Below are positions 671 to 9,286 of a stretch of 9,536 nucleotides of DNA, piece after piece. The position numbers and the translations under genes were made by a program. The notes below the pieces were generated by a model. It saw only the letters and a list, made by a program, of their open reading frames with translations. It was not told the origin of the DNA and ran no database searches. Source of the DNA: Nitrospinota bacterium (GTDB lineage Bacteria > Tectomicrobia > Entotheonellia > J063); NCBI GenBank assembly GCA_003696125.1, contig RFHZ01000416.1, forward strand, positions 1 to 9,536. The letters are read 5' to 3'. Position 1 is the first letter of the stretch, and the number at the start of each line of letters is the position of its first letter.

Positions 671-2734
671 TCAGGTCCCCTCCGCTCCACGAGCCGATCC
701 GGCAAGGGACATGCGCTCAAAGAGCTGGCAGAATTCCTGTAGATTGGCCTGGCGCTGGATATCGACTACCGGCTGGATGCCGCTTTGATGCTCTTCACTC
801 ATCAGGATGAACTGGTTGATGGCTGCCACGCCATAAAGCGTGGCCAACCGACGATCATAGGCGGTCGGTTTTCCTCCCCGCTGCTGGTATTTGAGCGTAT
901 CGGTAACAGCGATCTGCCCCTGGGCGCTCAGCATCTGGGCCAGGGTCGCATCCTGCTTGATCTGGTCTTCCATCTGGGCCACGATCTCGGCAATCTCCTG
1001 ACTCCGCTCCTGCGTCAGGATCATGGTGGCATTGGTTCGTTGCTGTTGTCGGATACTCTCCAGCACATCGGCGATGGCCCGGGTGGTATCCTTGGGATAA
1101 TCCTGGATGAAGACCTGCTCGCATCCTCCCACAATGGCGGCCAGCAGGGAGAGGAAATCGGTTTCGGCATCGGCAAGCTGGACAAATCCCAGTCGCTTGG
1201 TTGCCGCCGTGGCCTGCACCATCATATCGAGGTGGCGCATGATCTGGTTGAGGGCAGTATCAAAGCCGAGGGAGCGCATGGTCAAGGAGAGGGGGCCGGC
1301 AAAACCGGCCGGGATGAAGAGGATCGGAAAGGGAGTGGGAAGGGCGAGATGGAGTTCTTCGGCATGCTTGAGGGTTTGCATATCACCGACGATTACCAAA
1401 CCCTCCATCCCGTATTTCTGGATATTCTCCACCATCTGCCCGATCTTTTCCGAGTGGAAATGGGGACTGGCCGTCATCTTGATATAGGTGGGGAGCAGCA
1501 CGTTCCGCATGGACAGGTGTTCCCACTGGAGCTCGTGTATCCACCCCTCTCCTGCGGCCAGGCCGTCAAATCCATCGGCGATACCGAGAACGGTGACATT
1601 TCGATGCCACCCCTCCCGGACCATGGCACGCAGGACGAGGTAGAGACCGGGCACATAATCGGTGCCCAGCAGTACCCCTATGGTCGAGGGGAGGTACTCT
1701 TTGCGCCGGCTCTTGTGCCGGTACGACATCCGCTGGCTGATGTCGAGGATTTCTCGCATATGCTGGGAGAGACGCTTGGTCCAGCGATTCGTCTCCGTGA
1801 TCACCTGGGCCAGAGGGGTGGTTACGACCTGCTGGCTGCGGATTCCGACCATGACCCCTCCCATTCCTTGCACCACCAGCTCTCCGGCAGCATCTCCCAG
1901 CCGGGTAGCGAGCAGGCGATCGTAAGCAGAAGGGATCCCTCCACGCTGGATATGGCCGAGCACAGCCGGACGGGTCTCCTTGCTCATGACCTTGTTTAAA
2001 TGGAGGGTCTGGGTGATATAATCGGTGGAGAAATCGACCCCTTCGGCACGGATGATGATGCCGCTGCTCTGCTGTTCCCTTCGCTCCCGGTCCTGCAGGA
2101 TCTCGATCATCTCCAGGAACTGCTCGAAGCGCTCCCCCCCTTCCCGTTCTGGCACGAAGATATAGTCGGCTCCAGAGGCCAGACCGCTGACCAGAGCCAG
2201 GTACCCGCAATTCCTCCCCATCACCTCAATAACAAAGGCTCGATTGTGTGACTCCGCGGTATCCCGGAGGTGATCGATACTCTCCACAATGGTATTGAGT
2301 GCCGTATCGGCGCCGATGGACATGTCGGTCCCGGCAATATCGTTATCGATACTTGCCGGCACCCCTACAACCGTCAAGGGGCTCTCCTGGTTCAACAGAT
2401 GGGCCCCCTGGAGCGACCCATCCCCTCCGATGACCACCAGACCGGTAAATCCAGCCTCCAGGTACCGCCGCAAGGCCCGCTGTCGCACCTCGGGCTCCTT
2501 AAAAAGCGGGTAGCGGGCCGAGCGGAGAAAGGTTCCTCCTTCACGGAGCCAGCCCCGCGGAGCCTTCCAGTCCATCTGTTTCCACTGGCCTTCGGCAAAT
2601 CCCTTGTACCCATCATAGATTCCCCAGACTTCGGCAGAAGGGTCACGCGAGAGAATGGAGCGAATCACCGCCCGCACCGCCGTATTCATGCCAGGAGAAT
2701 CTCCTCCACTGGTGAGTATTCCGATCTTCTTCAT
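671..2734 (-). CDS. Tandem-duplicated ATP-dependent 6-phosphofructokinase with a degenerate C-terminal half
   Basis: It is predicted to phosphorylate fructose 6-phosphate to fructose 1,6-bisphosphate in glycolysis, in the cytoplasm. The protein has 687 residues, about twice the usual bacterial PfkA (~320) and closer to eukaryotic PFKs. N-half (1 to ~335): TSGGDSPGMN (8-17), GGDGS (103-107), PASIDND (126-132) with catalytic-type Asp130, VMGRNCG (171-177), and GHIQRGG (260-266). Gly in GGDGS and the absence of Lys before SIDND point to ATP rather than PPi as donor. A basic linker (~336-348) leads to the C-half (~350-675), which keeps ADGFDGL (386-392) and YQQRGGKPTAYDR (616-628). There GGDG is replaced by VGDM (449-452), SIDND by GFAGP (477-481), and MGR is lost. 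The C-half is therefore probably non-catalytic and possibly regulatory. The start at 2734 is chosen because homology begins at MKKIGILTSGGD, GAGGAAAGGGAGG lies directly upstream, and the longer frame to 2866 would start upstream of the promoter. No gene symbol is given because of the fusion. Confidence 0.93.
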   Translation of the reverse strand: MKKIGILTSGGDSPGMNTAVRAVIRSILSRDPSAEVWGIYDGYKGFAEGQWKQMDWKAPRGWLREGGTFLRSARYPLFKEPEVRQRALRRYLEAGFTGLVVIGGDGSLQGAHLLNQESPLTVVGVPASIDNDIAGTDMSIGADTALNTIVESIDHLRDTAESHNRAFVIEVMGRNCGYLALVSGLASGADYIFVPEREGGERFEQFLEMIEILQDRERREQQSSGIIIRAEGVDFSTDYITQTLHLNKVMSKETRPAVLGHIQRGGIPSAYDRLLATRLGDAAGELVVQGMGGVMVGIRSQQVVTTPLAQVITETNRWTKRLSQHMREILDISQRMSYRHKSRRKEYLPSTIGVLLGTDYVPGLYLVLRAMVREGWHRNVTVLGIADGFDGLAAGEGWIHELQWEHLSMRNVLLPTYIKMTASPHFHSEKIGQMVENIQKYGMEGLVIVGDMQTLKHAEELHLALPTPFPILFIPAGFAGPLSLTMRSLGFDTALNQIMRHLDMMVQATAATKRLGFVQLADAETDFLSLLAAIVGGCEQVFIQDYPKDTTRAIADVLESIRQQQRTNATMILTQERSQEIAEIVAQMEDQIKQDATLAQMLSAQGQIAVTDTLKYQQRGGKPTAYDRRLATLYGVAAINQFILMSEEHQSGIQPVVDIQRQANLQEFCQLFERMSLAGSARGAEGT

Positions 2735-2974: not shown

Positions 2975-3943
2975 ATGCAATGGGGAAAAGTTGTGCTGTG
3001 GAGTTTTTTGCTCGTCTTTGCGCTCACGGCTGTGGTGGTGGCAGAGCCTTTACGGATTGCCATGTCTACCTGGGTCGGGTACGGTCCCCTGCACCTGGCC
3101 AAGGCAAAGGGGTTCTATGCCGAGGAGGGGGTGGAGGTGAAGCTGATTACCATGGAGGAGCCGACCCCCCGCTTTGCGGCCCTGGCAGCCGGCCGGCTGG
3201 ATGGCCTGGCCAGCACCATTGACACCATGATTCTCCAGAGTAAAAAGGAGATCCCCTATGTGATGGTCCTGGCTCTAGACGACTCGGCTGGTGGCGACGG
3301 TATTGTGGCCAACAAGGAGATCAAGAGCATTGCCGACCTCAAAGGGAAGAAGGTCGCCTTCAACCTGGGATCGGTAAGCCAGTTCTGGGTCAACGTCCTC
3401 CTGCAGCAACACGGTCTGAAAGAGTCGGATATCACGGTGGTCAACATGTCTGCCCCTGATGCCGGCGCCGCCTTTGTGGCCAAGAAGGTCGATGCCGCCG
3501 TCACCTGGGAACCCTGGCTGACGCGAGGGAAGCAGGCACCACATGGACACCTGCTCATCGACAGCAGCCAGACACCGGGACTCATCGTTGACATCCTGAT
3601 CTTCCGGAAGGATGTGGTAGAAAAGCGCTCTGCCGATATCCAGAAGGTGGTCAATGCCTGGTTCCGGGCCGTCGACTTCTGGAAGCAGCATCCACAAGAA
3701 GCCAATACCCTCATGGCCAAGGCGGTAGGGGGATGGCTGAAAGACCCGAAAGTCTTTGCCGAGACCTTGCAGGGAGTCAAGCTCTTGGGACGGGAAGAGA
3801 ATCGGAAGTTCTTCGGTACCAAAGAGAACCCTGGACCGATCTTTACCACGGCGGCCAAAGCGATCCAGATCTGGAAAGACTTTGGGAAACTGAGCTGGGA
3901 GCCGAAACCAGAGGAGATCATCGAGACGAAGTTCGTCCAGTAA
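2975..3943 (+). CDS. NitT/TauT-family ABC transporter periplasmic substrate-binding protein (NMT1/SsuA-like)
   Basis: The 322-residue protein should capture the ligand in the periplasm and deliver it to the permease and ATPase encoded downstream. It has a Sec-type signal peptide: Lys5, a hydrophobic core at 6-22, and a likely cut after VVVA (Ala23, before EPLRIA). There is no lipobox cysteine, so it should be a soluble periplasmic protein. Family landmarks in order are TWVGYGPLHLAKAKGFY near the N-terminus, AALAAGRLDG, a DLKGKKVAFNLGS segment that starts the second lobe, and DAAVTWEPWL. These are typical of the NrtA/TauA/SsuA group (COG0715). The start ATG has GGGAGG (2961-2966) 8 nt upstream. 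Substrate within the family (nitrate, taurine, sulfonates, pyrimidine precursors, others) cannot be read from the sequence. The adjacent aminotransferase suggests an amino compound, which is inference only. It is first in the operon and separated from the permease gene by a strong hairpin. Confidence 0.9.
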   Translation: MQWGKVVLWSFLLVFALTAVVVAEPLRIAMSTWVGYGPLHLAKAKGFYAEEGVEVKLITMEEPTPRFAALAAGRLDGLASTIDTMILQSKKEIPYVMVLALDDSAGGDGIVANKEIKSIADLKGKKVAFNLGSVSQFWVNVLLQQHGLKESDITVVNMSAPDAGAAFVAKKVDAAVTWEPWLTRGKQAPHGHLLIDSSQTPGLIVDILIFRKDVVEKRSADIQKVVNAWFRAVDFWKQHPQEANTLMAKAVGGWLKDPKVFAETLQGVKLLGREENRKFFGTKENPGPIFTTAAKAIQIWKDFGKLSWEPKPEEIIETKFVQ

Positions 3944-3957
3944 TCGCGCAATGAACT

Positions 3958-4005
3958 CCTTGCCCCCAGAAGGGGTGATACTGCCTGTACCCACTGGGGG
4001 CAGGG
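3958..4005 (+). other. Intercistronic 12-bp mRNA hairpin between binding-protein and permease genes
   Basis: The arms TGCCCCCAG (3961-3969) and CTGGGGGCA (3994-4002) are perfect 9-bp complements. A G-U pair and two further C-G pairs extend the stem to 12 bp (3958-3969 with 3994-4005). Inside the 24-nt loop, GGGT (3973-3976) can pair with ACCC (3989-3992). No T-run follows; the next bases are AAAGTCGCGGGG, so this is not a classical Rho-independent terminator. It starts 14 nt after the binding-protein stop and ends 12 nt before the permease ATG. In importer operons such structures commonly protect the upstream message and raise binding protein over permease. That role is inferred. Confidence 0.75.
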
Positions 4006-4017
4006 AAAGTCGCGGGG

Positions 4018-4896
4018 ATGAATACCAAGAGCAGGGGAATACCTTTCAGCAAGCAGGAAAGCAGGCTGTCTATGATGAAAAAAGGAGTGATCAGAGCCAA
4101 ACTCTCCCCCTATTTCGAGCCCAAGGTCCATATTCCGCAGCGTGTGTATCTCTCTACCAGTGTGCTCACCGTCTCCCTCCTCTTTGCCGCCTGGTGTAGC
4201 GTGACCTATACTGGTCTGGTGGAACCGATCTTTCTCCCCTCCCCCACCCAGGTCATCCAGGCCGGCATAAAGATGTTCCTGGCCGAAGACCTCCTGATCG
4301 ATGTCCTGGCCAGTGTGAAGGTGATCTTTACCGGATTTATCCTGGCCGCCATCCTGGCTGTTCCTTTAGGGATGCTCATGGGAAGCTTTAAGATTGTGGA
4401 GGCGGTGATCGAACCGATCACCAATTTTATCCGTTATCTGCCGGTCAGTGCCATGATCCCGCTCCTCATTCTCTGGGTAGGTATCGGCGATGAAGAGAAG
4501 ATCGCCGTGATCTTTATCGGTACCTTCTTCCAGTTGATCCTTCTTATCGCTGACGTTTCGGCCAATGTGCAAAAAGAGCTGCTGGAGATCTCCTATACCT
4601 TGGGAGCAACCAGGCGGCATGTGGTGACCCGGGTCCTGATCCCGGCCGCCTTACCCGGAATCATGGATAACCTGCGTATCACCATGGGTTGGGCCTGGAC
4701 CTATCTGGTCGTTGCCGAACTGGTGGCGGCGGATAAGGGACTGGGCTATGTCATCCTGCAATCGATGCGTGGACTCTTCACCGATAAGATCTTTGTCGGG
4801 CTCTTCGTCATCGGCTTTCTGGGTCTGGTAACCGACCAGACCTTCAAGATCCTGCACCATATCTGTCTCCCCTGGTCAGAAAAAGAGGGAGGATGA
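4018..4896 (+). CDS. NitT/TauT-family ABC transporter permease (SsuC/TauC-like)
   Basis: This inner-membrane permease (292 residues if started at 4018) forms the transport path of the importer, presumably as a dimer. Hydrophobic segments lie at about 46-60, 100-121, 144-156, 162-180, 222-236 and 257-272, consistent with the six-helix BPD_transp_1 fold. The cytoplasmic EAA loop that docks on the ATPase is seen at about 190-214 (EISYTLGATRRHVV, then IPAALPGI), with the conserved Gly at residue 196. LPSPTQV (73-79) before the core is characteristic of this subfamily. The start is uncertain. The ATG at 4018 has only GCGGGG abutting it, whereas the paired ATGs at 4072 and 4075 would give a 274- or 273-residue protein beginning MMKKG or MKKG. 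Neither has a strong ribosome site. The 6-nt gap to the ATPase gene and the ATPase ribosome site inside the end of this gene indicate cotranslation. Confidence 0.92.
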   Translation: MNTKSRGIPFSKQESRLSMMKKGVIRAKLSPYFEPKVHIPQRVYLSTSVLTVSLLFAAWCSVTYTGLVEPIFLPSPTQVIQAGIKMFLAEDLLIDVLASVKVIFTGFILAAILAVPLGMLMGSFKIVEAVIEPITNFIRYLPVSAMIPLLILWVGIGDEEKIAVIFIGTFFQLILLIADVSANVQKELLEISYTLGATRRHVVTRVLIPAALPGIMDNLRITMGWAWTYLVVAELVAADKGLGYVILQSMRGLFTDKIFVGLFVIGFLGLVTDQTFKILHHICLPWSEKEGG

Positions 4897-4902
4897 TCCC
4901 CG

Positions 4903-5715
4903 GTGTCTGCTGAACTTACTCCCAAACTGGTGCTGCGTAATGTCTCCATGGCCTATACTACCCGCTCGGGTTCTATCCTGGCCATCGATAATCTCTCCTG
5001 CCAGGTCTACGACCGGGAGATCGTCACCATTGTCGGCACCTCTGGATGCGGCAAATCGACCCTGCTCCGGATGATCGCCGGGCTGATCAAACCGACGGCC
5101 GGAGAGATGCTGCTCGACAACCGCCAGATTACCGGTCCGGGTCCGGATCGGGGGATGGTCTTCCAATCCTACACCCTCTTCCCCTGGCTTACGGTGCGGA
5201 AGAACGTCGAATTCGGCTTGAAGATCAAAGGGATTCCGGAAAAGGAACGCCGGGAGATCGCCTCGCATTTCCTCAATATCGTCGGGTTAAAGGGCTTTGA
5301 GAATGTCTATCCCAAGAGCCTCTCGGGGGGGATGAAACAACGCGTGGCCATTGCCCGCGCCCTGGCCAATGATCCGGATATCCTCTTGATGGACGAACCG
5401 TTTGGGGCTCTCGATGCCCAGACCAGATCCCTCATGCAGGAACTGTTACTCAAGGTCTGGGCAGAATCCCACAAGACGATCCTCTTTGTGACGCACGACG
5501 TGGATGAAGCCATCTTCTTAGGCGACCGCGTCTATGTCATGTCGGCCCGTCCTGGCCGGATTCGGGAGGAGATCGAAGTTCCCCTGGAGCGCCCCCGTAC
5601 CTACGAGATGCTGACCACAGAGACCTTCATGCGGGTCAAGCGAGCCGTGCTGCAGATCATCCATGAAGAGAGTGTCAAGGCCATACAACACGAAGCCATA
5701 GGAGGACAAGCGTGA
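4903..5715 (+). CDS. NitT/TauT-family ABC transporter ATP-binding protein (SsuB/TauB-like)
   Basis: This 270-residue cytoplasmic ATPase powers the importer. All nucleotide-binding motifs are intact: Walker A GTSGCGKST (45-53), Q-loop Gln88 in MVFQSYTLFPW, signature LSGGMKQ (140-146), Walker B ILLMDEP (160-166) with the D-loop GALDAQ, and the switch histidine His198 in FVTHDVDEA. The Q-loop TLFPWLTV and the length are typical of SsuB/TauB/NrtD proteins, which lack the long C-terminal regulatory domain of sugar-type ATPases. The start is GTG at 4903, with GGGAGG (4887-4892) 10 nt upstream inside the end of the permease gene. The TGA at 5713-5715 overlaps the GTG of the aminotransferase gene. 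I see no anomaly in the motifs, so the importer looks functional. Confidence 0.96.
   Translation: MSAELTPKLVLRNVSMAYTTRSGSILAIDNLSCQVYDREIVTIVGTSGCGKSTLLRMIAGLIKPTAGEMLLDNRQITGPGPDRGMVFQSYTLFPWLTVRKNVEFGLKIKGIPEKERREIASHFLNIVGLKGFENVYPKSLSGGMKQRVAIARALANDPDILLMDEPFGALDAQTRSLMQELLLKVWAESHKTILFVTHDVDEAIFLGDRVYVMSARPGRIREEIEVPLERPRTYEMLTTETFMRVKRAVLQIIHEESVKAIQHEAIGGQA
5700..5714 (+). promoter_or_regulatory. Ribosome binding site and GTGA overlap coupling the ATPase and aminotransferase genes
   Basis: AGGAGG (5700-5705) lies 6 nt before the GTG start of the aminotransferase gene (5712-5714), inside the last codons of the ATPase gene. GTG overlaps the ATPase TGA (5713-5715) in a GTGA junction. 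This strong site decides the start and implies translational coupling, tying the enzyme to the importer. Confidence 0.8.
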
Positions 5716-6890
5716 AGATAGCAGACCGGGTAACCCGCTTTACCGAGTCGGTGATCCGAGAGATGACTCGCCTCAGCGATCTCCACAACGGGATCAACAT
5801 GGCACAGGGATTTCCGGATTTCGATCCTCCCCAAGAATTACAGGAAGCGGCCATCCGGGCCATACAGGGCGGTTACAACCAGTACTCGATCACCTGGGGA
5901 GCCCTGCCCCTGCGGCAGGCCATAGCGGAGAAGGTGAAGTGGTACAACGGGATCGAAGCCGATCCTGAGCAGGAGATCACGGTGACCTGTGGAGCAACCG
6001 AAGCGATGATGGCTGCCCTGATTGCCGTCCTCAACCCGGGAGACGAGGTGATCATCCTGGAGCCATTTTACGAAAACTATGAACCGGGAAGCATCATATC
6101 CGGTGCCAGGGCGGTCTTTGTCCCGCTCCACCCTCCCGATTTCTCCTTTGACCGGGAAGAATTGCGAGCCGCCTTTGGTCCCCACACCAAGGCCATCGTC
6201 ATCAACAACCCGAATAACCCTACCGGCAAGGTCTTTACCCGGGAAGAACTGGAGGAGATCGCCTCCTTGTGCCAGGAGTTCGACGTGCTGGCCATCACCG
6301 ATGAGATCTATGAGCATATCCTTTACGACGACCGTCAACACATCAGCCTGGCCAGCCTTCCCGGCATGTGGGAGCGGACGATCACGATCAACGGGCTCTC
6401 CAAAACCTATAGCGTGACCGGATGGCGGGTCGGCTATGTGGTGGCCCAGGCGACCCTCTCCGATGCGGTCCGGCGGGTACACGACTTCCTGACCGTGGCC
6501 GCCCCTTCTCCCTTCCAGGAAGCCGGTGTTACTGCCCTCAGGTTCCCTTTAACCTACTACGAGGAGTTGAAAGCGGCCTATGCCCGGAAGCGACAGACTA
6601 TGCTCTCCATCCTGCAACAGGCCGGATTTCCTTTCTACCCTCCCCAGGGAGCTTACTATGTCCTGGCAGATATCTCCCCCTTCGGCTTTAGCGATGACTT
6701 CCAGTTTGCCCACTGGCTGGTGAAGGAGTGTGGTGTGGCCGTGGTACCGGGCACGAGCTTCTATCATCATAAGGAACTGGGAAGACAGCTGGTTCGCTTC
6801 GCCTTTCCCAAACGGGAAGAGACACTGCAGGAGGTAGGGAGGCGTCTGGCTCCCCTGGCCCAAAGGAGGAAGAGCGTTTCGACCGGGTGA
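5712..6890 (+). CDS. PLP-dependent class I/II aminotransferase
   Basis: This 392-residue cytoplasmic enzyme, fold type I (AspC superfamily), moves an amino group between an amino acid-like donor and a 2-oxo acid. Catalytic landmarks are complete: CGATEAM (93-99) binding the cofactor phosphate, Tyr120 in LEPFYENY stacking on PLP, NNPNNPTG (165-172), Asp197 in TDEIY pairing with the pyridine nitrogen, the Schiff-base lysine Lys231 in GLSKTYSVTGWRVGY, and Arg363 in VRFAF, the usual carboxylate-binding arginine. The N-terminal AQGFPDFDPP (31-40) resembles the kynurenine/glutamine/methionine aminotransferase branch. Substrate within that branch is not readable from motifs. The GTG start has a strong AGGAGG site and overlaps the ATPase stop, so it belongs to the importer operon. 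Acting on the imported compound or its product is the natural inference. Class III taurine aminotransferases are a different family, so taurine is not implied by this gene. Confidence 0.93.
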   Translation: MKIADRVTRFTESVIREMTRLSDLHNGINMAQGFPDFDPPQELQEAAIRAIQGGYNQYSITWGALPLRQAIAEKVKWYNGIEADPEQEITVTCGATEAMMAALIAVLNPGDEVIILEPFYENYEPGSIISGARAVFVPLHPPDFSFDREELRAAFGPHTKAIVINNPNNPTGKVFTREELEEIASLCQEFDVLAITDEIYEHILYDDRQHISLASLPGMWERTITINGLSKTYSVTGWRVGYVVAQATLSDAVRRVHDFLTVAAPSPFQEAGVTALRFPLTYYEELKAAYARKRQTMLSILQQAGFPFYPPQGAYYVLADISPFGFSDDFQFAHWLVKECGVAVVPGTSFYHHKELGRQLVRFAFPKREETLQEVGRRLAPLAQRRKSVSTG

Positions 6891-7604: not shown

Positions 7605-7658
7605 GGCGAGTTCCTTCTCCTCTCAGGCCACCACCCCATATCGGCGATGTATCATCGC
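7601..7658. other. Convergent gene ends with two weak inverted repeats, no convincing terminator
   Basis: The plus-strand regulator ends at 7604 and the minus-strand 544-residue gene ends at 7652. Two short dyads lie here: CTGAG (7601-7605) with CTCAG (7622-7626), loop 16 nt, and GCGATG (7644-7649) with CATCGC (7653-7658), loop TAT. The second contains the stop codon of the minus-strand gene. Neither is followed by a T-run on either strand, so efficient intrinsic termination is not supported. Confidence 0.3.
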
Positions 7659-9286
7659 AAGAGCCGGTACCACTTCCGTATCCGGGTCCAGAACCCGGTC
7701 ATACGCCCTCTGATAAACCGCTCCCATAAGCGGTAGAGTCCCCATCCTCCTCCCAGAAAGAGATACACCCCCAGAACCCAGAGGAAGAATTCCGGCCAGG
7801 TGGCCTGCCTGATCAGCGCACCGGCAAAGAGCTCGGTCAGGATACCGGCAGGGAGTCCAACAAAGGTGAGGAAGTAGACCAGGCTGTTGAGGCGCCGCTC
7901 GTACCGTCGCTCGTAATGCTCATGGAGTTCTCGCACCTCGGCGGTGACTTCCTCGTACAGGGGGGGTACACGCAACCCGTGTCGAAACCGCTGGTACAGC
8001 TCGTTGCCCTGGGGACGGTAGGTCACCTCGGTGAAGTAGTAATGATCACGAAACTGCAGAAACGCCTCCCACAAGAGACGAGCCTCATGGAGATTGCGGT
8101 AGAAGTGGGTGTGACGGCGTATCAGTTCACCATGCAGGAGACTCAGCCGGAGCTTCTGGTAGAGGACCAGGAGATAGAGATGAAAGTAGTCGCTCTCCAC
8201 GTTATGCGCCAGAGCATACCGGGTAAAGCGGGTCGGGTGAAGACCCAAGAAGACGACGTTCTGATGCAGGGCCATCCCCTGCCAATTCTCCCAGAGGGCA
8301 ATGCTGTTCTGCTCCCTCAGCCGGGTCACCTGCGTGGGGTGCGGCCTGTAATCCTCCTGCGTCGTATCGGTACCGGTGGCCAGCTCATACAATGCCTGCT
8401 CTGCCGGGGAGGCAAAGCCATGCGCTGTCCCCTGCTCTTCTTCTGCCTTGCGGAGAGCATCCTGAGCAAGACAGGCATAGGTATAAAGGTGGAACGCCTG
8501 GCCATAGACCTGCCCCTCTTTCCGGCCTGTGCTTCGAGGGGCCGTCGGATGATGCGCAAGATGCTCCAGGTATCTCTCTAAGGTTGGAACGATGGTGTCT
8601 GGCATTGCCAGACCTTGCAGGAGAAAGTCGATGAGATCACGGGTCTTGCAGGTAAGAGGATGCGCTCCCTGCAACTTGCACCTCCAGTCTGCCAACACCC
8701 AATCGATGGTCAGAGGATGAATCGGCCGAAGATAGAAGAGGAAATCGTTGAGGTCCCTGACGCTTCCTTCTCCTCCTGTCCGTTGTACCTTGAGGATCAA
8801 CACCCCGACCTGCTGGGGGAAGAGCACCACATCGACCCAGCAGAGATCAAAGGGGATAGTGAAATGCTCTATGCGCTCGCCAGCGACATTGCGACGGGTA
8901 AATTCCAGTTGCAGGGGTTTTAAGGTTGCCAGTTGTTCAGGATTGTAGGTGAGACGGAGTACGGCATCCTCAGAAACCCTATCCCCGAGCTCTGGCAGGG
9001 GGAGGCTGGCCCAGCGGGTGGCCTCGAGCAACTGTTGGGAGGGATCGCCAGGGGAGAGGTGAGTGGCCTCGGGAAAGAGCATCTCCCGCAGATAGGGGAG
9101 GAAGAAGTAGGTGTCGTCAAGAGTCCGTTTCAGGGCATCACGATCCAGTCGGCTCCACCAGGGGAGCCAGCGTCCTTCCAGGGCCTGGAGCAGGTCTCTC
9201 CGCTCTCCTCCGGCTAAGGCATGGCGGAAAGGGTAGACCAGCAGTGTAAAATGCCGGGCCAGGGGAAGATCTGGGGCCGGGTTCAT
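7652..9286 (-). CDS. Uncharacterised 544-residue protein with two C-terminal membrane helices (CorA-like layout)
   Basis: I do not recognise the family with confidence. The N-terminal ~460 residues are soluble-looking and mixed alpha/beta. The run FTIPFDLCWVDVVLFPQQV followed by GVLILKV (about 142-167) looks like a beta-rich core. Residues ~395-465 are long charged helices ending in EVRELHEHYERRYERR. Two hydrophobic segments follow at about 467-490 and 498-518, then a short basic tail (522-544). A large cytoplasmic domain, a long stalk helix, two C-terminal membrane helices and a basic tail are the CorA Mg2+ channel layout, but the signature GMN after the first helix is absent; GLPAGI (477-482) lies inside that helix. 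It may be a divergent CorA-like membrane protein; transport is not shown. There is no signal peptide. The ATG at 9286 has GGAGG within GGGGAGGAGC 6-7 nt upstream and overlaps the preceding stop as ATGA. Confidence 0.85.
   Translation of the reverse strand: MNPAPDLPLARHFTLLVYPFRHALAGGERRDLLQALEGRWLPWWSRLDRDALKRTLDDTYFFLPYLREMLFPEATHLSPGDPSQQLLEATRWASLPLPELGDRVSEDAVLRLTYNPEQLATLKPLQLEFTRRNVAGERIEHFTIPFDLCWVDVVLFPQQVGVLILKVQRTGGEGSVRDLNDFLFYLRPIHPLTIDWVLADWRCKLQGAHPLTCKTRDLIDFLLQGLAMPDTIVPTLERYLEHLAHHPTAPRSTGRKEGQVYGQAFHLYTYACLAQDALRKAEEEQGTAHGFASPAEQALYELATGTDTTQEDYRPHPTQVTRLREQNSIALWENWQGMALHQNVVFLGLHPTRFTRYALAHNVESDYFHLYLLVLYQKLRLSLLHGELIRRHTHFYRNLHEARLLWEAFLQFRDHYYFTEVTYRPQGNELYQRFRHGLRVPPLYEEVTAEVRELHEHYERRYERRLNSLVYFLTFVGLPAGILTELFAGALIRQATWPEFFLWVLGVYLFLGGGWGLYRLWERFIRGRMTGFWTRIRKWYRLLR

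What the first reader, a model, noticed from the sequence alone, without database searches (positions are those of the whole stretch)
671..2734. Eukaryote-like tandem phosphofructokinase in a bacterium, with a catalytically dead second half
Seen: two PFK-like halves in one 687-residue chain. The first keeps GGDGS, SIDND, MGR and GHIQRGG. The second keeps YQQRGGKPTAYDR and ADGFDGL but has GFAGP where SIDND should be and VGDM where GGDG should be. Known: eukaryotic ATP-PFKs arose by duplication and fusion, and their second half became allosteric; typical bacterial PfkA is a single ~320-residue unit. Inference: this is either an independent duplication or a relative of the eukaryotic architecture, and the second half may bind an effector.
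Basis: partly seen in the sequence, partly recalled or inferred. Interest (0 to 1): 0.7.

Follow-up and report, generated by a model that had tools for sequence, protein, structure and literature searches.

The report
Bacterial double phosphofructokinase with dead half
This bacterial gene makes a glycolysis enzyme built from two copies of phosphofructokinase fused end to end, the first apparently working and the second stripped of its catalytic residues, a layout usually credited to animals and fungi but which turns out to occur in a fair number of bacteria, this copy being an unusually divergent one.

Summary
On the minus strand, 671-2734 encodes a single 687-residue chain with two PFK domains (28% identical, E 6e-26). 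The N-half keeps every ATP-PFK residue checked. The C-half has lost the ATP, Mg, catalytic and most F6P residues, yet models as a PFK fold. It is the only PFK found in its metagenome-assembled genome, and the contig's composition fits that bin. It is not a member of the curated eukaryotic PFK1 family: it scores well under the cut-off, lacks the N-half insert, and its C-half is more degraded. No second copy of this form turned up in about 690 sampled genomes. However, true eukaryote-type tandem PFKs are present in 31 of 301 genomes of one bacterial phylum and in two small phyla, so the bare headline is not unique. Origin is unresolved: shared ancestry with the eukaryotic-type tandem is not rejected, and a Trp at E. 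coli position 54 is shared by all tandem halves but by only 2 of 66 single PFKs. Best reading: an ATP-dependent PFK whose second half is a pseudoenzyme scaffold. The eukaryote-style sugar effector pocket is mostly gone from it. New variant of a known kind; interest moderate.

The parts
671..2734 (-). tandem phosphofructokinase gene, 687 aa, ATG start, TGA stop
1730..2734 (-). N-terminal half (aa 1-335): intact ATP-dependent PFK domain
   Evidence: 337 bits to PF00365; all catalytic residues present
1685..1717 (-). short basic junction between the halves (HKSRRKEYLPS, aa 340-350)
674..1705 (-). C-terminal half (aa 344-687): degenerate PFK domain; AlphaFold2 model is a PFK fold
   Evidence: 149 bits to PF00365; Z 27.2 to E. 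coli PfkA 1pfk
2414..2428 (-). GGDGS in the N-half (ATP/Mg; Gly104 = ATP type)
2339..2353 (-). SIDND in the N-half (catalytic Asp127, Asp129 of E. coli numbering)
2213..2221 (-). MGR in the N-half (F6P binding)
1937..1957 (-). GHIQRGG in the N-half (F6P binding, His249, Arg252)
1373..1390 (-). VGDMQT in the C-half where GGDGS stands: ATP/Mg motif lost
1292..1306 (-). GFAGP in the C-half where SIDND stands: both catalytic Asp lost
1157..1177 (-). LADAETD in the C-half where VMGR.. stands: F6P motif lost
851..889 (-). YQQRGGKPTAYDR in the C-half: Arg252 kept, His249 replaced by Tyr
2567..2578 (-). QMDW in the N-half: Trp at E. coli position 54, shared with all tandem PFK halves examined
1523..1534 (-). 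ELQW in the C-half: Trp at E. coli position 54

Best explanation
The gene encodes a fused double phosphofructokinase. The N-half is an ATP-dependent 6-phosphofructokinase. The C-half is a PFK-fold pseudoenzyme that can no longer bind ATP or catalyse. By analogy with solved PFKs, whose active and effector sites lie between neighbouring PFK units, the C-half most likely stands in for a neighbouring subunit: it completes the (pseudo)tetramer, supplies the retained Arg162 equivalent to the N-half's F6P site, and fixes the quaternary geometry that sets cooperativity. Shown: the fusion, the intact N-half motifs, the loss of the C-half motifs, the PFK fold of the C-half model. Inferred: ATP rather than PPi as donor (from Gly104 and no Lys at 124), the oligomer, the scaffold role. 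Because it is the only PFK found in the genome, it is probably the cell's glycolytic PFK.
For: N-half has G11, R72, D103, G104, D127, D129, M169-G170-R171, E222, H249, R252, R162, R243; the protein matches ATP-PFK family PFKA_ATP above its cut-off (459 v 371 bits, whole protein). C-half has D, A, GDMQT, GFAGP, ADA, Q, Y at the corresponding places and keeps R162, R252, R21, R25. The C-half AlphaFold2 model (pLDDT 71.5, pTM 0.70) aligns to E. coli PfkA at Z 27.2, 2.8 A over 291 residues, against about 9 for unrelated folds. Both halves show the same coding pattern. Only PFK in the genome. Arg162 of a neighbouring subunit binds F6P in bacterial PFK (PMC12203962).
Against: The C-half has lost Arg243 (Gln), the second neighbour arginine that eukaryotic-type C-halves keep, so its help to the N-half active site is reduced, or N-half sites pair with each other. 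No model of the full-length or assembled protein was obtained (single-sequence model failed, pLDDT 39). No close relatives were found with which to test selection on the C-half.
Confidence: 0.65

Rival explanations
1. The C-half is a regulatory half in the eukaryotic sense: its former pockets or the inter-half sites bind an effector that switches the N-half on or off.
For: The fusion architecture matches eukaryotic PFK1, where the former C-half F6P site binds fructose 2,6-bisphosphate (PMC12203962). R21 and R25 of both halves, R154 and D187 of the N-half and E187 and R213 of the C-half remain at bacterial effector-site positions.
Against: The C-half sugar pocket has lost MGR, E222 and H249, more than human, yeast or bacterial eukaryote-type C-halves have lost; K211 and K213 are gone from the N-half; R54 is Trp.
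Confidence: 0.25
2. The C-half is merely decaying: a duplicate on its way out, with no role.
For: Very long branch (7.8-9 changes per column) in every half-by-half tree that holds it; most conserved motifs lost.
Against: 342 in-frame codons without a stop, the same third-position GC as the N-half, a confident PFK-like core in the model (blocks with pLDDT about 90) and no frameshift. Retained QRGG..P.AYDR and GFDTALN motifs.
Confidence: 0.1
3. Assembly or binning artefact: two genes joined, or a contig from another organism.
For: The bin has 990 contigs and 8% contamination; the four same-class genomes carry only a different PFK (open frames of 427-539 aa) or none, and the neighbouring aminotransferase has no strong match there.
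Against: One continuous frame with matching codon bias in both halves; the C-half has no close homologue as a separate gene in 386 genomes. Tetranucleotide correlation with the bin is 0.88-0.89 for 4-kb pieces, inside the 0.83-0.92 range of its own contigs and above the best other genome (0.78).
Confidence: 0.06

Closest known systems
Eukaryotic ATP-dependent PFK1 (NCBIfam TIGR02478 6PF1K_euk; human PFKP/M/L, yeast PFK1/2)
   Same: Two fused PFK domains, catalytic first half, second half without the ATP site; Trp at E. coli position 54 in both halves.
   Different: 413.6 bits against a cut-off of 708.4; no insert of about 22 residues between GGDGS and SIDND in the N-half, which all eukaryote-type N-halves examined have (23 v 45 residues); C-half sugar pocket far more degraded; shorter, 687 aa.
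Bacterial eukaryote-type tandem PFKs (e.g. L134-L161, L027-L030)
   Same: Tandem PFK in bacteria, about 740 aa, dead or dying C-half.
   Different: Those listed score about 980-1040 bits to TIGR02478 and group with human and yeast PFK by half; the window protein stands far outside.
Bacterial PfkA (PFKA_ATP, TIGR02482)
   Same: The N-half: all active-site residues, no eukaryotic insert, 42-47% identity to the closest single PfkAs.
   Different: PfkA is a single domain of about 320 aa; here a second, degenerate domain is fused.

Membership tests
PFK superfamily (PF00365) | match to the PFK domain above the curated cut-off | tested here: met
   337 and 149 bits v 30.9
ATP-dependent PFK (TIGR02482 / E. 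coli PfkA type), N-half | score above the equivalog cut-off | tested here: met
   459 v 371.35 bits for the whole protein
ATP-dependent PFK (TIGR02482 / E. coli PfkA type), N-half | Gly104 and catalytic Asp127, with MGR and GH.QRGG | tested here: met
ATP-dependent PFK (TIGR02482 / E. coli PfkA type), N-half | ATP-dependent activity in an assay | not testable with these tools
   needs purified protein
Eukaryotic-type PFK1 (TIGR02478) | score above the equivalog cut-off | tested here: not met
   413.6 v 708.4 bits
Eukaryotic-type PFK1 (TIGR02478) | two fused PFK domains with a non-catalytic second half | tested here: met
   by sequence:
Eukaryotic-type PFK1 (TIGR02478) | insert of about 22 residues between GGDGS and SIDND in the N-half | tested here: not met
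   23 residues between anchor positions, against 45 in all six eukaryote-type N-halves
Eukaryotic-type PFK1 (TIGR02478) | C-half sugar effector pocket (Gly170, E222, H249) kept | tested here: not met
   D, Q, Y in the window C-half
Eukaryotic-type PFK1 (TIGR02478) | common ancestry of the fusion (N with N, C with C in a tree) | tested here: inconclusive
   N: AU p 0.498; C: AU p 0.495; N-only tree joins winN to the eukaryotic N-halves at 81/77

The most novel reading that the evidence does not exclude
The window protein is a surviving early branch of the very tandem lineage that also gave eukaryotic PFK1: the duplication and fusion happened in bacteria, before the N-half insert and the C-half sugar-effector pocket of the eukaryotic type took shape, and eukaryotes received the enzyme from bacteria. 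Support: Trp54 in both halves, as in all 12 eukaryote-type halves but only 2 of 66 singles; winN beside the eukaryotic N-halves in the N-only tree, 81/77; eukaryote-type tandems spread over many bacterial families.
Probability: 0.22. Interest if true: 0.7.

Novelty: new variant of a known kind. Interest (0 to 1): 0.42.

Why it matters
A 2025 review of the superfamily (PMC12203962) presents the duplicated, half-dead PFK as a eukaryotic feature that enabled complex allostery. A bacterial tandem PFK with a different, more reduced dead half, next to the finding that eukaryote-type tandems sit in many bacterial genomes, makes the order and place of that invention testable, and offers a simpler enzyme in which to ask what a dead half does when it has not become a eukaryote-style regulatory one.

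Tried and rejected
Close relatives: genome-contig scan with the full protein found none. A degenerate DNA scan for the C-half motif QQRGGxPxA[YF]DR found 24 places; blastp recognised single-domain PFKs or fragments of them in 23, with no tandem among them. The C-half against 386 diverse genomes gave at best 31% identity among the listed matches, nearly all single-domain PFKs; the tandem frames matched were the known eukaryote-type ones and the window itself. Plasmids: listed matches are ordinary PFKs. Viral contigs: none. Other long open frames with a PFK match (G104, G242, G308, G029, G017) proved to be single PFKs in over-long frames. Full-length AlphaFold2 without an alignment failed (pLDDT 39) and is not used. 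In-lineage duplication (winN sister to winC): 12 log units worse, but AU p 0.22, so not rejected. Signature residues of eukaryotic N- or C-halves taken as a class: the window halves match hardly more than the best singles, so only Trp54 is noteworthy, and it was noticed after the fact. Literature: no paper found on bacterial tandem PFK.

Full report
What is there. A purine-rich stretch (GAGGAAAGGGAGG) precedes the ATG. Pfam finds two PFK domains and nothing else, 337 bits for the first and 149 for the second. The halves are homologous to each other, 28% identity over 301 residues, E 6e-26.

Residue by residue, in E. coli PfkA numbering (sequence from NC_000913; alignment). N-half: G11, R72, GGDGS 101-105 with Gly104, D127, D129, M169-G170-R171, E222, H249, R252, and the neighbour-site arginines R162 and R243 are all kept. 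Gly104 and the absence of Lys at 124 point to ATP rather than PPi (established knowledge of the family; inference here). C-half: G11 is D, R72 is A, GGDGS is GDMQT, TIDND is GFAGP, MGR is ADA, E222 is Q, H249 is Y, R243 is Q; R162, R252, R21 and R25 remain. So the second half should not be a PFK by the known mechanism. It is also worse off than the second halves of human, yeast or bacterial eukaryote-type PFKs, which keep E222, H249 and R243; in eukaryotes that pocket became the fructose 2,6-bisphosphate site (PMC12203962).

Fold. An AlphaFold2 model of the C-half with 19 single PFKs as alignment has pLDDT 71.5 and pTM 0.70. It matches E. coli PfkA at Z 27.2 (2.8 A over 291 residues) and human PFKP at 26.7, while the first unrelated fold in the list has 9.4; Foldseek agrees. 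The alignment consisted of PFKs, which steers the model, so this confirms rather than discovers the fold. The stretches around GFAGP and the QRGG loop are low in confidence, so pocket geometry should not be read from it. No usable model of the fused chain was obtained.

Is it real? The reading frame is unbroken, third-position GC is 0.70 and 0.72 in the two halves and 0.68-0.74 in the neighbours, and a chance stop-free run of 342 codons has p about 6e-6. The genome is a bin of 990 contigs, 94.8% complete, 8% contaminated, with no other PFK. The contig's tetranucleotide profile fits the sampled contigs of the bin (4-kb pieces 0.88-0.89; bin contigs 0.83-0.92; best foreign locus 0.78). The four same-class genomes have only a distinct PFK type, or none. 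Misbinning is unlikely but not excluded.

How common is it? Nothing of this form was found in the 85,000-species contig set by exact peptide patterns or by a degenerate C-half motif. None was found in 386 genomes sampled across the domain or in 301 genomes of the phylum of G064 (where a protein scoring like the window's 5.5e-84 would have been listed). Peptide scans find only close relatives and the genome sample is a small part of known species, so distant relatives may exist.

But the general architecture is not unique. Proteins that exceed the curated cut-off for eukaryotic PFK1 (TIGR02478, 708 bits), mostly by about 300 bits, occur in 4 of 386 sampled genomes and in 31 of 301 genomes of one phylum, several of these being single-contig assemblies. 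One genome each of two small phyla has one too. They can carry plainly bacterial neighbours, for example a ribose-phosphate pyrophosphokinase-like gene and a second PFK (the naming of neighbours there is by eye). The window protein scores 413.6 bits, below that cut-off, lacks the N-half insert and has a more degraded C-half. It is not a member of that family, though it has the same layout.

Origin. In a tree of halves and single PFKs the eukaryotic-type N-halves and C-halves each form a starred clade and the window halves fall outside both; winC has an end branch of 7.8-9 and its place is meaningless. Holding winN with the eukaryotic N-halves costs 0.9 log units (AU p 0.498); holding winC with their C-halves costs 0.9 (p 0.495); holding winN with winC, as a private duplication, costs 12 (p 0.22). 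Without the C-halves, winN joins the eukaryotic N-halves at 81/77, short of a firm result. One residue stands out: Trp at position 54 in all 12 eukaryote-type halves, in both window halves, and in 2 of 66 singles. Of eight columns shared by at least 10 of the 12 eukaryote-type halves and scarce in singles, winN has four and winC two (singles: 35 of 66 have none, maximum four). This favours common ancestry a little, or convergence imposed by the fused arrangement; it was seen after the fact and should be tested on fresh sequences. A tree of full-length tandems did not resolve whether eukaryotes nest among the bacterial ones.

How it most likely works. The N-half carries out F6P + ATP to FBP + ADP. 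In PFKs the active site is completed by Arg162 of a neighbouring unit (PMC12203962); the C-half keeps that arginine and the fold, and most likely acts as the built-in neighbour of a pseudotetramer (inference). The eukaryote-style sugar effector role is not supported by the residues. An effector at the inter-half sites remains possible.

Surroundings. 15-16 bp downstream of the PFK stop, on the same strand, an RND/HlyD-type adaptor begins (2-655, cut by the window end), so they may be co-transcribed. Divergently, 2975-5715 encodes an SsuA/TauC/TauB-like ABC importer, followed by a class I/II aminotransferase whose start overlaps the ATPase's stop, and a Crp/Fnr-type regulator. None of these points to a special role for the PFK.

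Noticed in passing
L027-L030 and L134-L161 (genomes G064, G108, G205, G290, G509 and others): Full eukaryote-type tandem PFKs (mostly 980-1040 bits to TIGR02478) in bacterial genomes, 31 of 301 in one phylum including single-contig assemblies. Some C-halves still hold the catalytic Asp (PATIDNN), others Asn (PATINNN). The superfamily review consulted treats this architecture as eukaryotic.
   Followed up: partly
window 7652-9286, minus strand: 544-residue ORF with no Pfam or NCBIfam match, hydrophobic C-terminal segments; only weak matches (E 1e-6 to 1e-10) over residues 331-514 in 4 of 145 genomes.
   Followed up: partly
window 2975-6890, plus strand: SsuA-like binding protein, TauC-like permease and ABC ATPase followed by an aminotransferase that overlaps the ATPase stop by 4 bases; a second copy of the aminotransferase (59%) lies on another contig of the same genome.
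   Followed up: no
L028 and L029: The eukaryote-type tandem PFK lies directly beside a second, 400-residue PFK gene and a phosphoribosyl-pyrophosphate synthase-like gene in G205 and G064.
   Followed up: no
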